64,000 nucleotides of DNA from Sulfurimonas hongkongensis (lineage in GTDB: Bacteria > Campylobacterota > Campylobacteria > Campylobacterales > Sulfurimonadaceae). A program made the position numbers and the translations under genes. Shown piece by piece: positions 31,854 to 37,037 of this stretch; the stretch's first letter is position 1; each line of letters starts with the position of its first letter. The stretch lies in the NCBI RefSeq assembly GCF_000445475.1, contig NZ_AUPZ01000004.1, positions 62,001 through 126,000 of the forward strand. The letters are read 5' to 3'. The notes beneath the pieces are model-generated. The model was not told the origin of the DNA, did not search any database, and saw nothing but the letters and a program-made list of their open reading frames with translations.

Positions 31854-33644
31854 ATGTTTAAAAGCTTGATGCTTTTTTTGTTTTTACTTCTTTGGTTTTT
31901 ACTAGCCGAGAGCTCTTCATGCTTAGTTTTTCTCTTCTATCTATTTGTCCTTACCCCTCTTTTAATGCTCTCTCTTATAGAGATGCCACTTATTAAAAAG
32001 CTTGCAGTTGCTAGTGCTATTTTTCATGAGAGTAGCTCTCTTTTTAGTATTTTTAAAAGTGTTTGGCTAAATCTTTTCATCTCTTTAATACTTGCTTTTG
32101 TAGTAGCAACTTTGATGCTAGTAAGTAGCCTCTACTTTGACGCTTTTATATTTTTTATCTTAGGTTTTGACATCTTAGTGCTATGGGGAATCTACGCAAA
32201 AACAAAAAAGTATTTAGCAACTAGAGTTAAAGAGGAGTTTTTGTTTGCAGTCTCAAGAAGATGGAGCATATATATAAATACACTTTTTTTAGTTTTAGTT
32301 TTTGTTGTTTATGCTTACTTTAGCACCCCAAGCATCGAGATAAAAACCTTTAACTGCGAGATACTAAACTTTATATCAATAAACCTAAGATACAAAGAAC
32401 TTCTAGAATATAAGCTTATAAGCACTTCCTTAGAGGCACTAGATTACTCAAAAAACATCTACATTTGGCTATTTTATCTTCTTGTGTCTCAAGGTGTTTT
32501 TGCTTGGGGTTACTCAAGATTACTCTTTTGTTTTGAGTCAGTAGATGCCATCTTAAAGACAAAGCAGAGATATAAAAACTACTTCTTGTTTGGTTTTATC
32601 TCTACTATAATCTTGCTTTTTATAATCAGCTCAAGCATAAATTATTTATATGAAAAACACCATATCAAGAAATCTCAAGCAAAGATTGACAAGTTTTACA
32701 AAGATGTAGATAGAGTGATAGACTCAAAGCTAAACACATCTCTTGAGTTGTTACTTCAAAAGGTAGATGCAGATATAGATAAGCATGTAGATGGAGTCTT
32801 TGTAAAAGTCTATGATGGAGTGCCGGGTCTTAGCGCGTACTACTACTCCATCAAAGGTGAATACAGCAGAATCTTTTTAAAAGCTTATAGTCTTTACTGC
32901 GGATATAAAAACGATTACTTAGCCCCATACTACAACCAGTATTTACCAAAAAAATTTCAACTAAAAGATTGTAATACTGAGGCTTTAGAAGATGAGATAA
33001 TGACAAAAATAAACTACTACCTTTTTGATCAAAACGACTTCTCTACAAGAGTAGATGAGGCTTCAAGAGATATAGATAAAAGTATAAAAAAAACAATGCA
33101 AGAGTTTCAGAGCCAACTAAGACAAACTGTTAGTTTGCTTGAGATTGAACATGACATAAAGCCAAACTCATTGGAGTTAAACTTTAGAGACATATTTGAA
33201 GCAAACTCAAGAGATATGGCAAAAAAAGGACTTAGTGCTACGGGAACCCTGCTTATTAGTGGTGCCATCTCAAAGAGCATAATGAGTAAGATGCTACTAA
33301 AGTTTGGAGCAAAAGGAGCCATAAAAGCATCTTCGTTTTTTGGTGCATCTATGGGTGGAATCGCCCTTTGTGCGCCTAGTGGTCCGTGGGCTCTGCTTTG
33401 TGGAGTTGTGACTGGGACTGCTAGTTGGGTCGGAGTTGATGCTGCTATGACTGAGGTTGATCAAGCATTTAATGAAGAGGATTTTAAAAAGAGTGTAGTT
33501 ATGATGATAGATGCACAAAAAAACTCTCTAAAAAACCTTATGAAAGACTCTTACAAAGAGTGGATAAGAAAGGTCTTTAAAGAGTTAAGAGATGATGCAA
33601 ACAAACTAAAATCTCCATACGAACAGAGTTTTTCTAAGGGTTGA
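31854..33644 (+). CDS. Large polytopic membrane protein of unknown function
   Basis: 596 residues. The N-terminal half has about six hydrophobic helices. The central part is charged and helical (residues ~270-440). The region ~455-520 is Gly/Ala-rich and hydrophobic (TGTLLISGAISK, GAKGAIKASSFFGAS, GPWALLCGVVTGTASW) and resembles membrane-inserting hairpins. It is probably co-transcribed with the CtpA-like protease, so it may be its partner or substrate (inference). Its last ~23 codons are repeated at 34974-35036 as a detached fragment. Not assigned to a family. Confidence 0.78.
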   Translation: MFKSLMLFLFLLLWFLLAESSSCLVFLFYLFVLTPLLMLSLIEMPLIKKLAVASAIFHESSSLFSIFKSVWLNLFISLILAFVVATLMLVSSLYFDAFIFFILGFDILVLWGIYAKTKKYLATRVKEEFLFAVSRRWSIYINTLFLVLVFVVYAYFSTPSIEIKTFNCEILNFISINLRYKELLEYKLISTSLEALDYSKNIYIWLFYLLVSQGVFAWGYSRLLFCFESVDAILKTKQRYKNYFLFGFISTIILLFIISSSINYLYEKHHIKKSQAKIDKFYKDVDRVIDSKLNTSLELLLQKVDADIDKHVDGVFVKVYDGVPGLSAYYYSIKGEYSRIFLKAYSLYCGYKNDYLAPYYNQYLPKKFQLKDCNTEALEDEIMTKINYYLFDQNDFSTRVDEASRDIDKSIKKTMQEFQSQLRQTVSLLEIEHDIKPNSLELNFRDIFEANSRDMAKKGLSATGTLLISGAISKSIMSKMLLKFGAKGAIKASSFFGASMGGIALCAPSGPWALLCGVVTGTASWVGVDAAMTEVDQAFNEEDFKKSVVMMIDAQKNSLKNLMKDSYKEWIRKVFKELRDDANKLKSPYEQSFSKG

Positions 33645-33677
33645 TTTCACTTTTGATGATTTTGCTAATTCATTACA
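33576..33677 (+). repeat. ~102-bp direct repeat, left copy, flanking an inserted segment
   Basis: It covers the 3' end of the membrane-protein gene and a remnant of the trpA 3' end. Read on the minus strand the remnant still encodes KIIKSEINP and a stop. It is about 90 percent alike with 34974-35077; many differences are at synonymous positions. Confidence 0.88.
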
Positions 33678-33722
33678 ACTGATGTTATTGCTAGGTCACA
33701 CATTTTTTAAATTTTATTGTTT

Positions 33723-34745
33723 CTATACTCCAAGATTTAACAACTTACCTGAAGTTGGTAATTTTGCATTTTTAAGTGTCTGATAGGCTGATGAAGGTGT
33801 GTTATTATCATTTTTACTTAGAATTGAATCTTTAGCAATGCTTTGTCCTGAGAGATAACTACTGTAGTTTTCTTTTGTATGACGATCTATTTCTTTCATT
33901 AATGTATCGAACATATCAGGATCATCAAAATGTATATTCATCCCATCTGCTAGATTTGTTACATAATCGGCTCCGAATTTATCTGTTAGATAAGATTCGA
34001 AATCTTGTCCAGTTTCTAAAAATTTATAATAAGCTTTTGTAGCATTATATGTAGCTTGATCTGTTCCACCTATAGTTTGTGTGCAAAAAGCTCCAAAAAG
34101 CTCACCTACACTAATTTGATCTTTAGATTCACTTGAATTATAATTAGGAGAAATATAGTTTTGATATATACTCTTAATATTTTGAAGATTATCTCCAACA
34201 GCAATATTTTCACCAAAAAATGATCTAAAACCTGTTTCAAAAGTATTTTCCGACATACCTTGAATGTCACCAGATATTTTACTTACTTGAAGATATTCTT
34301 TTTGTGTTTGTTGTATGCTAATTGGGTTATCAAATAAACTGCCAGTAAATTCAAAACTTCTAGGCATTTTACTAACTTGTTCAATGCTCATACTTCCATC
34401 AGAATCAAGAGTGTTTCCAGCTACTTTAGCAAAGAAATCCCAAACTTTACCAAGTGCTTTAACAGGGTCATCGTTTGAACCAACTATTTTAGCATATTGT
34501 TCGACAGTATCCATTTGCTGCTTATGGATTTTGATATTATCAGGAATCCCTGCCGCTTTATTAAAATCAGTACTAAAAAAACCGTTTTCATCGACTTTAA
34601 ATCCCCATTTGGTTGAGATAGTAGCACTATCGCTACTTACAGCTGATAAACTAATCGCATCAGTAGATATTTCAGAAGTCTCTGATCTTTTTTTAACGAT
34701 AGATGCAGAATAAAGTGAAGATGATGTGACACTAGCTATGGACAT
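33723..34745 (-). CDS. Hypothetical protein, possibly secreted, encoded in inserted segment
   Basis: 340 residues. AAGGAG before the ATG at 34745 makes that start better than the longer frame to 34784. The N-terminus (SIASVTSSSLYSAS) is Ser-rich and lacks a Sec signal, like substrates of the flagellar export route. LDSDGSMSIEQV around residue ~115 resembles an EF-hand loop. There is one cysteine and no membrane helix. It is the only gene inside the segment bounded by ~100-bp direct repeats, which points to acquisition. Family not recognised. Confidence 0.78.
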   Translation of the reverse strand: MSIASVTSSSLYSASIVKKRSETSEISTDAISLSAVSSDSATISTKWGFKVDENGFFSTDFNKAAGIPDNIKIHKQQMDTVEQYAKIVGSNDDPVKALGKVWDFFAKVAGNTLDSDGSMSIEQVSKMPRSFEFTGSLFDNPISIQQTQKEYLQVSKISGDIQGMSENTFETGFRSFFGENIAVGDNLQNIKSIYQNYISPNYNSSESKDQISVGELFGAFCTQTIGGTDQATYNATKAYYKFLETGQDFESYLTDKFGADYVTNLADGMNIHFDDPDMFDTLMKEIDRHTKENYSSYLSGQSIAKDSILSKNDNNTPSSAYQTLKNAKLPTSGKLLNLGV

Positions 34746-34973
34746 AATAAGCTCCTTATATAATGGTAACAAATTTAATAACACTAAAAAAACAAATATT
34801 GTTCCATTTATTTTGTTTATATTGGTTAGTTTTTCAAAAGCTTAAATGGATTAAAGGAGTAGTATAGTTACAAAGCGTGCTGGCGAAAGTGATGATTTGT
34901 TATGCTTTTTTTAAAGTATCTCATTTTTTTGTTCTTTTAAAAAAGCTAAAAAGATTCGGCTCAAGCTCTTGTA

Positions 34974-35036
34974 TTTAAAGAGCTAAGAGATGATGCTAAC
35001 AAGCTAAAATCTCCATACGAGCAGAGTTTTTCTTAA
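34974..35036 (+). pseudogene. Detached 3' fragment of the 596-residue membrane-protein gene
   Basis: Reads FKELRDDANKLKSPYEQ SFS and a stop, matching the last residues of the gene ending at 33644 with several silent changes. It has no start and lies inside the right direct repeat. Its stop codon overlaps the trpA stop on the other strand. Confidence 0.85.
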
Positions 35037-35077
35037 GGGTTGATTTCACTTTTTATGATTTTAGCTAACTCATTACA
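34974..35077 (+). repeat. ~104-bp direct repeat, right copy, flanking an inserted segment
   Basis: Counterpart of 33576-33677. It includes the intact trpA 3' end on the minus strand and the fragment of the membrane-protein gene. Upstream of it (34746-34973) I see no gene. Confidence 0.88.
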
Positions 35078-35773
35078 TTTTTGAATTTTTTGTTGATAAT
35101 TTAAGTCATCTCTTAGAAGTATCTCTATAAAAGCACTTCCTACGATAACACCATCGGCACCTTGTGCTTTATCTTTTGCAGTTTTTGCATTTACTCCAAA
35201 ACCTACATAAATGGGCGTTTTTGAGAACTCTTTTATGGAGTTTATAAAAGGCTGTAAGTCTTCTGCTATCCCTGAACCTGTGATGCCAGCGTATGCTACC
35301 ATATAGATAAATTTTTGTGCATCGCTTGTTATCTCTTTTATACGCTCTTTAGAGTCTGTTGGTGCTACAAAACTAATATTACTTATAGAGTTTGCTCTAA
35401 ATAGATCACTGTATTTGAGTGATTCTTCATATGGTAAGTCGGGGATGATAAGTCCACTTACTCCAAGTTTAGATGCAAGTGGTAAAAGTTTGTTCATATC
35501 TTGTTGGTAAAAGCTGTTGAAGTAACCCATCCAAAGAGTATCAACTTTTGGGGCTATTATCTGGGATATCTCCAATAATTCTTTAAACTTAAAACCACTC
35601 TTTAGCGCTATATGGTTTGCTTTTTCTATAAGAGGACCATCTGCTACTGGGTCTGAAAATGGAACGCCAAGTTCAACCATATCAACTCCATGCTCGCCAA
35701 GTGATAGACTTAAATCTACTGTAAATGATTTTTCAGGATAGGTTGTTGTTATATATGCTACTAATTTTTTCAA
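35033..35773 (-). CDS. trpA: Tryptophan synthase alpha subunit
   Basis: 246 residues, slightly short for TrpA (~268 in E. coli). The catalytic Glu lies in VELGVPFSDP and the catalytic Asp in the following SDPVADGP. The phosphate-binding end GADGVIVGSAF is present. It cleaves indole-3-glycerol phosphate and passes indole to TrpB. No other trp gene is in the window. The HPt gene starts upstream with 16 nt between them, so they may be co-transcribed. Its 3' end has been duplicated at 33640-33677. Confidence 0.96.
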   Translation of the reverse strand: MKKLVAYITTTYPEKSFTVDLSLSLGEHGVDMVELGVPFSDPVADGPLIEKANHIALKSGFKFKELLEISQIIAPKVDTLWMGYFNSFYQQDMNKLLPLASKLGVSGLIIPDLPYEESLKYSDLFRANSISNISFVAPTDSKERIKEITSDAQKFIYMVAYAGITGSGIAEDLQPFINSIKEFSKTPIYVGFGVNAKTAKDKAQGADGVIVGSAFIEILLRDDLNYQQKIQKCNELAKIIKSEINP

Positions 35774-35789
35774 TTTTTTTCCAAATATT

Positions 35790-36191
35790 TTATTTTTCTA
35801 AAGAGGGCAGTTTTAAGAGCTCAAATTTTATGTGAGTTAGCTCATTATCAGCTCTTAAATCCTCTAACCACTGAGCGTATGTGTCACTGATGGCAAGAAG
35901 CCAAGAGACGACTTCACTGCTTGCCAACTCCTCAGTCCCTCTTAGTTCTTCTAAGGCATCTTCAACAAAGGCTGAGAGCTTTGACATAGAAGTAATTTTT
36001 AGGTAACCTGATGCGGATTTTATATTGTGAAAAACACGGAAAAGTTCATCTACACTTCTCTTATATCTGTTAGGTTTTTCAAGATCCATAATCATAACCT
36101 CCATGCTCTCAACCATCATAGTGTAGTGGTCTAGAAACTCATCTACGATTTCAAAATCAAAGTTAGCATCTAACTCACTTCTTACGCCCAT
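35790..36191 (-). CDS. Stand-alone histidine phosphotransfer (HPt) protein
   Basis: 133 residues, all helical. The phosphorylatable His sits in FRVFHNIKSASGYL, matching the HxxKG/S-A-x-x-hydrophobic HPt motif as in CheA P1 domains. There is no kinase or receiver domain, so it would relay phosphate between other proteins. GGAGA precedes the ATG. It is divergent from panB with 54 nt between starts. Confidence 0.85.
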   Translation of the reverse strand: MGVRSELDANFDFEIVDEFLDHYTMMVESMEVMIMDLEKPNRYKRSVDELFRVFHNIKSASGYLKITSMSKLSAFVEDALEELRGTEELASSEVVSWLLAISDTYAQWLEDLRADNELTHIKFELLKLPSLEK

Positions 36192-36245
36192 AAAGTAATT
36201 CTCCTATTTAGTGCAATTGTATCAGTTTTTGGTTAAAATACTTTT

Positions 36246-37037
36246 ATGAATAAAAAAATGACAATTACTTCCATACAAAAAACAAAAGGTGTGCGTCCTT
36301 TAGTGATGATAACGGCTTATGATGCACTATTTGCTAGGCTTTTTGAATCAAGTTCAGACATGATTTTAGTAGGAGACAGTCTAAATATGAGCTTTGCTGG
36401 CAAAAGTGATACTCTTAGTGCAACAATGGAGCAGATGCTCTACCACACAAACGCAGTTTGTGAGGGAGCAAAGAGTAGCTTTGTGGTGTGTGATATGCCT
36501 TTTGGAACTTATGATAACAAAGACGATGCTCTTAAAAATGCTATGAGAGTCTATAAAGAGACACAAGCGGACTCTGTAAAGATAGAAGGCGGAGAGAGTA
36601 GAGCTGACATAATCGAGTATCTAACGACTCATGGCATCGCCGTTTGCGGACACATAGGACTTTTGCCACAATCTGTAAGAAGTGAGGGTGGTTATAAAGT
36701 AAAAGGAAAAGATAGTATCCAAAGAGAGCATTTGTTAAGAGATGCAAAAGCTGTGCAAAAAGCTGGAGCGTTTTGTATGGTTATAGAGGGTGTAAAAGCT
36801 GAGGTGGCAGCTGAAGTGGCCCAGAGTGTTGATATCCCTGTTATTGGCATTGGAGCTGGTACTGGAGTTGATGGTCAGGTTTTGGTTTTCTCAGATATGC
36901 TAGGATTGTTTGAAGAGTTTACTCCTAAATTTGTAAAAAAATATATGGATGGTGCATCTTTGATAAGAAGTGCTGTGAAAAACTACGCTGATGAGGTTTT
37001 AAAAAAGGAGTTTCCAAAAGAGGAACATACTTACTGA
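36246..37037 (+). CDS. panB: 3-methyl-2-oxobutanoate hydroxymethyltransferase
   Basis: 263 residues, normal length. Typical blocks are MITAYDALFARLFE, LVGDSLNM (Mg/ketoacid site), VKIEGG, GHIGLLPQS and VIGIGAGTGVDGQVLV. It transfers the hydroxymethyl group from methylene-THF to 2-oxoisovalerate, the first step of pantothenate synthesis. ruvB follows after 27 nt, an order common in this phylum. Confidence 0.97.
   Translation: MNKKMTITSIQKTKGVRPLVMITAYDALFARLFESSSDMILVGDSLNMSFAGKSDTLSATMEQMLYHTNAVCEGAKSSFVVCDMPFGTYDNKDDALKNAMRVYKETQADSVKIEGGESRADIIEYLTTHGIAVCGHIGLLPQSVRSEGGYKVKGKDSIQREHLLRDAKAVQKAGAFCMVIEGVKAEVAAEVAQSVDIPVIGIGAGTGVDGQVLVFSDMLGLFEEFTPKFVKKYMDGASLIRSAVKNYADEVLKKEFPKEEHTY

What the first reader, a model, noticed from the sequence alone, without database searches (positions are those of the whole stretch)
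33576..35077. 1.3-kb segment inserted at the membrane-protein/trpA junction, with ~100-bp duplicated flanks
Both flanks contain the end of the membrane-protein gene and the end of trpA on the other strand. The left one keeps a trpA remnant (KIIKSEINP), the right one a remnant of the membrane-protein gene. Flanks differ mainly at silent sites, so they are not a fresh target duplication. A likely path is transfer of a fragment from a relative with one-sided recombination. The cargo is one gene for a possibly secreted protein.
Basis: partly seen in the sequence, partly recalled or inferred. Interest (0 to 1): 0.6.

Follow-up and report, generated by a model that had tools for sequence, protein, structure and literature searches.

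The report
Imported secreted-protein gene between duplicated flanks
A gene for a probable flagellum-exported protein has been added between two ordinary neighbouring genes of a Sulfurimonas bacterium, leaving about 100 letters of their junction in two copies; a sister species shares the scar but carries extra genes in it, other relatives lack it, and the ends of the gene have recently been exchanged between species while its middle has not.

Summary
The membrane-protein/trpA junction occurs twice (33576-33677 and 34974-35077, about 90% identical), with one gene between the copies. Three same-genus genomes have the two genes directly convergent with no cargo. The nearest relative, G060 (Sulfurimonas sp. 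STCSWMC_194), has the same duplicated junction, including the same one-base deletion in the left copy, but 3.4 kb of cargo: the same gene plus a C39 peptidase, an outer-membrane protein and a small leader-bearing protein. The duplication is therefore neither an assembly error nor fresh. The cargo gene is a remote relative of the Campylobacter Cj0814 flagellum-dependent secreted proteins. It lies behind a sigma-54 flagellar-type promoter, degenerate at -12 here. Between the two species its ends show pS 0.04-0.06, against about 0.5 in neighbouring genes, while its middle shows 0.61: clear evidence of recent lateral exchange of the ends around a divergent middle. The scar fits single-crossover integration of a fragment carrying the cargo plus a divergent copy of the junction, but the original event and donor are not seen. 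No integrase or transposase is present. It is an ordinary class of event, nicely preserved; the mosaic cargo and its Campylobacter-plasmid connection are the more interesting parts.

The parts
31854..33644 (+). intact 596-aa membrane-protein gene; its 3' end lies in the left copy of the junction and reads SFSKG-stop after loss of one T
   Evidence: relatives at 81% (G060) to 48% (G009)
33576..33677 (.). left copy of the membrane-protein/trpA junction
   Evidence: same copy with the same 1-T deletion in G060 (L047:3610-3694)
33634..33677 (-). decaying remnant of the last ~14 codons of trpA inside the left copy (KIIKSEINP, TAG stop, 1-nt deletion upstream)
   Evidence: sequence reading
33723..34745 (-). 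cargo gene, 340 aa, remote relative of the Cj0814 family of flagellar-dependent secreted proteins
   Evidence: NCBIfam NF046095 E 1.9e-16, 60.6 bits against a cut-off of 80; no Pfam match
33723..33995 (-). 3' end of the cargo gene, 97-100% identical to G060 (pS 0.055)
33996..34522 (-). divergent middle of the cargo gene (pS 0.61, pN 0.30 against G060)
34523..34996 (-). 5' end of the cargo gene and its upstream region, 95-100% identical to G060 (N-terminal codons pS 0.04); the identity stops inside the right junction copy
34792..34806 (-). sigma-54-type promoter TGGAAC-N5-TTGT, 46 nt before the start codon; TTGC in G060, G004 and G063
34974..35077 (.). right copy of the membrane-protein/trpA junction
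34974..35036 (+). remnant of the last 20 codons and stop of the membrane-protein gene inside the right copy
   Evidence: (E 1.2e-6)
35033..35773 (-). intact trpA (tryptophan synthase alpha chain), TTG start
   Evidence: Pfam PF00290 E 3.2e-61

Best explanation
An ancestor of this genome and G060 acquired, by lateral transfer, a DNA segment carrying a flagellar-regulon secreted-protein gene joined to a diverged copy of the membrane-protein/trpA junction. Integration by a single homologous crossover inside the ~100-bp junction, as for a circularised fragment, placed the cargo between two junction copies without damaging either gene. The locus then kept recombining. The two ends of the cargo gene were exchanged between lineages, the middle stayed or became allele-specific, and either G060 gained or this genome lost a C39-peptidase/outer-membrane-protein block. 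The cargo protein is most likely exported through the flagellar export apparatus when the sigma-54 flagellar genes are expressed. Shown: duplication, empty sites, shared scar, lateral exchange of the ends, promoter motif. Inferred: circular intermediate, donor, export route, function.
For: Empty sites in G025, G144 and G145. Same diverged left/right pair in G060 with different cargo size. Cargo in only 4 of 135 genus genomes, two of them at a different, mutually syntenic locus. Synonymous divergence 0.04-0.055 at the cargo ends against 0.45-0.55 in neighbours and 0.61 in the middle. Left/right differences 5 synonymous:0 non-synonymous in this genome. Competence genes comEC and dprA present. 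Single-crossover integration of recircularised molecules is reported to give 109-950 bp duplications (PMC3240628). Export: Cj0814-family match; sigma-54 motif that in the same genome also precedes flagellin, a flagellin-N/FlgL-like gene and two rod-protein genes. C. jejuni CJM1_0791/CJJ81176_0835, probably the founding gene (equation not checked), is flagellum-dependent in supernatants (PMC5223770).
Against: No donor with cargo next to a lone membrane-gene 3' end was found in 135 genomes. A circular intermediate leaves no trace of its own. Two sites are shared by both copies within each genome, so gene conversion has blurred the age and source of the copies. The family score is below NCBIfam's cut-off, and the -12 element here is TTGT, so the promoter may be weak. 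The structure model was too poor (pLDDT 56) to help.
Confidence: 0.55

Rival explanations
1. The junction was duplicated in place (staggered break or replication accident with captured filler DNA carrying the cargo). The two copies stayed alike through gene conversion, which explains the mostly silent differences.
For: Two sites are shared by both copies within a genome but differ between genomes, the signature of conversion between copies.
Against: Several left/right differences and an indel are fixed in both genomes. The functionless parts have accumulated very few non-silent changes, more easily explained if each came from a working gene in another lineage.
Confidence: 0.25
2. Homology-facilitated illegitimate recombination of a linear fragment: a homologous crossover on the trpA side and an end joined without homology on the other.
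For: Competence genes present. The left edge of the cargo differs between G000 and G060.
Against: In reported cases this pathway generally deletes recipient DNA at the joint (PMC3240628); here nothing is visibly deleted and ~100 bp are doubled.
Confidence: 0.12
3. A site-specific mobile element (integrase-borne island or transposon) that uses the 3' end of the membrane-protein gene as attachment site and restores it.
For: Island-like anatomy: direct repeats restoring a gene's 3' end. In G078 a decayed 3' end of the same gene abuts a tyrosine-recombinase-like remnant.
Against: No integrase or transposase in either cargo, no viral or phage relative, and the 199-aa insert of G086 at this spot has no duplication.
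Confidence: 0.05
4. Assembly artefact or chimera.
For: None beyond draft status.
Against: The same arrangement and the same 1-T deletion occur in an independent assembly.
Confidence: 0.01

Closest known systems
Cj0814 family flagellar-dependent secreted proteins (NCBIfam NF046095)
   Same: Alignable over residues 44-223 (E 1.9e-16); flagellar sigma-54-type promoter in front.
   Different: 60.6 bits against a curated cut-off of 80; the C-terminal part lies outside the match; found in Sulfurimonas; export not tested.
Single-crossover (Campbell-type) integration duplicating 109-950 bp of the target, as in PMC3240628
   Same: Insert flanked by direct copies of the target, of similar size, both target genes kept intact.
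   Different: Copies here differ by about 10% and the circular molecule is not observed.
C39-peptidase/outer-membrane-protein block on Campylobacter plasmids (pFORC46.1, pSH89, pCCON16)
   Same: G060's cargo has the same pair (37% and 43% identity); on those plasmids Cj0814-like genes lie next to or near the pair.
   Different: The block is absent from the window's cargo; it is chromosomal in G060 and in G062, where no cargo-gene match was found.

Membership tests
Cj0814 family (NF046095) | score above the curated cut-off (80 bits) | tested here: not met
   60.6 bits, E 1.9e-16: remote relative only
Cj0814 family (NF046095) | release into medium depends on the flagellum | not testable with these tools
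   needs a flagellar mutant and a tagged protein
Sigma-54 flagellar regulon | TGGAAC-N5-TTGC promoter a short way before the start, as before other flagellar genes of the genome | tested here: inconclusive
   Motif present but TTGT at -12; perfect in G060, G004 and G063; same motif before flagellin, flagellin-N/FlgL-like and two rod genes
Integrase-borne island or transposon | recombinase gene or terminal inverted repeats | tested here: not met
   No such gene in either cargo; only weak, unrelated inverted repeats
Single-crossover insertion | direct repeats of the target on both sides, target genes intact, empty sites in relatives | tested here: met
Single-crossover insertion | circular donor molecule | not testable with these tools
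   no donor found in 135 genus genomes

The most novel reading that the evidence does not exclude
The locus is a small exchange station for flagellum-secreted proteins. A constant 5' end (sigma-54 promoter and export signal) and a constant 3' end serve as homologous handles with which lineages swap the divergent middle of the protein, while the duplicated junction lets the whole cassette be lost or replaced.
Probability: 0.2. Interest if true: 0.5.

Novelty: new member of a known kind. Interest (0 to 1): 0.34.

Why it matters
It is a well-preserved example of a bacterium gaining an accessory gene without breaking either neighbour, with empty, one-gene and four-gene states in relatives. It links a Sulfurimonas chromosomal insert to secreted-protein and C39-peptidase genes carried by Campylobacter plasmids. 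The constant-ends/divergent-middle pattern suggests that flagellum-secreted proteins may be diversified by recombination even in environmental Campylobacterota.

Tried and rejected
Relatives in viral contigs and phage records: none. Rfam: one sub-threshold chance match; no tRNA nearby. Short matches of the cargo's upstream region in many genus genomes proved to be AT-rich chance matches inside unrelated sequence. AlphaFold2 model of the cargo protein: mean pLDDT 56, not used for fold searches. PDB sequence searches of cargo and membrane protein: no match. PADLOC: none for the cargo. A scan of what lies next to trpA in other genomes mixed orientations and was not used.

Full report
Place and genome. 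The window is bases 62001-126000 of contig 4 of a 2.30-Mb genome.

Observation. The end of the 596-aa membrane-protein gene and the end of trpA occur together twice, at 33576-33677 and 34974-35077, 1398-1399 bases apart and about 90% identical. The left copy completes the membrane-protein gene and contains a broken trpA tail; the right copy completes trpA and contains the last 20 codons of the membrane-protein gene. In the right copy the two genes end on overlapping stop codons (TTAA). In the left copy one T is missing, which extends the membrane protein by two residues. A genome search recovers only these two copies as real matches (E 4e-21 for the second).

Relatives. Three same-genus genomes have the two genes directly convergent with at most about 35 bases between the stops and no cargo: G025, G144 and G145. 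G086 has an unrelated 199-aa gene between them and no duplication. G060 has the same duplicated junction, with the same one-base deletion in the left copy, but 3.4 kb between the copies. The duplication is therefore real, shared and old. Most genus genomes lack a full-length membrane-protein gene (8 of 135 have one), and only 4 of 135 have the cargo gene. In G004 and G063 the cargo gene lies at another locus, with the same neighbours in both.

Divergence of the copies. In this genome the in-frame parts compared differ at five silent sites and no replacement site, while random change would be silent about 18% of the time. In G060 the picture is similar apart from one codon of the functionless right remnant. 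Several differences and the indel separate left from right in both genomes, so they predate the split of the two loci. Two further sites are alike in both copies of one genome and differ between genomes, which suggests some conversion between copies. The silent pattern thus favours copies from two lineages but does not prove it.

Lateral exchange. Along the alignment to G060, identity is about 75-90% in most of the flanking genes, 97-100% in the last 270 bases of the cargo gene, about 50-75% in its middle, and 95-100% from its first ~74 codons through the upstream region into the right junction copy. Synonymous divergence is 0.040 and 0.055 at the two ends and 0.607 in the middle, against 0.554 (first 440 codons of the membrane gene), 0.485 (trpA), 0.455 and 0.480 in other neighbours. 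The first 100 codons of panB show a similar dip (0.100), so exchange between these lineages is not confined to the cargo. The two ends were exchanged or homogenised recently; the middle was not.

Cargo. No Pfam, PHROG or PADLOC family matches the window's cargo. NCBIfam gives Cj0814 family flagellar-dependent secreted protein at E 1.9e-16, below its cut-off. C. jejuni CJM1_0791/CJJ81176_0835 depends on the flagellum for its presence in supernatants (PMC5223770); that this is the Cj0814 gene is my inference. Upstream lies TGGAAC-N5-TTGT, which is TGGAAC-N5-TTGC in G060, G004 and G063. In this genome the motif with up to one mismatch has 15 matches; four besides the cargo precede flagellar structural genes. 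The protein is therefore placed in the flagellar regulon by inference.

G060's extra genes. They encode a C39 peptidase (Pfam E 1.1e-22), a 284-aa beta-barrel-like protein and a 156-aa protein with a signal-like start followed by LNDDEMKNVVAG; the G062 counterpart reads LNDAEMKEVVGG, resembling a double-glycine leader (my reading). The barrel protein has relatives on 47 Campylobacter plasmid records, in the listed ones beside a C39 peptidase. On pFORC46.1 and pSH89 Cj0814-like genes are adjacent to the pair, and on pCCON16 they are on the same plasmid. Whether G060 gained this block or G000 lost it is open.

Mechanism. No recombinase or transposase is present. Experiments in E. coli found that integration of a recircularised molecule by a single crossover leaves duplications of 109-950 bp, while homology-facilitated illegitimate recombination generally replaces recipient DNA (PMC3240628). 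The anatomy fits the former better. comEC and dprA are present, compatible with uptake of DNA but not proof of competence. Donor and intermediate remain unseen.

Verdict. The event is of a known kind. The most interesting open point is the divergent middle between recently exchanged ends of a probable flagellum-secreted protein.

Noticed in passing
window 36027-36526 (panB): Identity to G060 rises to 95-100% against about 85% around it; pS of the first 100 codons is 0.10 against 0.41 for the rest: another recombination patch.
   Followed up: partly
L047:3726-5684: C39 peptidase, outer-membrane-barrel-like protein and a small protein with a double-glycine-like leader form a block also found in G062 and, as the peptidase/barrel pair, on Campylobacter plasmids.
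   Followed up: partly
window 31854-33644: C-terminal third of the membrane protein weakly matches PADLOC LeoBC and LeoA (E 1.8e-6 and 2.2e-5).
   Followed up: no
L049:3683-4163: In G078 a second, partly decayed 3' end of the membrane-protein gene (82% to the full copy in that genome) abuts the C-terminal remnant of a tyrosine-recombinase-like protein, about 10 kb from the full copy and inverted.
   Followed up: partly
L052:3325-3924: 199-aa gene with a weak, sub-cut-off CagS match sits between the membrane-protein gene and trpA in G086 without duplicated flanks.
   Followed up: no
L065:4258-4875 and L104:4226-4900: A related 205-224-aa protein (MYxHQxG...) lies beside the cargo relative in one genome and within the C39 block in another, hinting at a wider recurring gene set (similarity by eye).
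   Followed up: no
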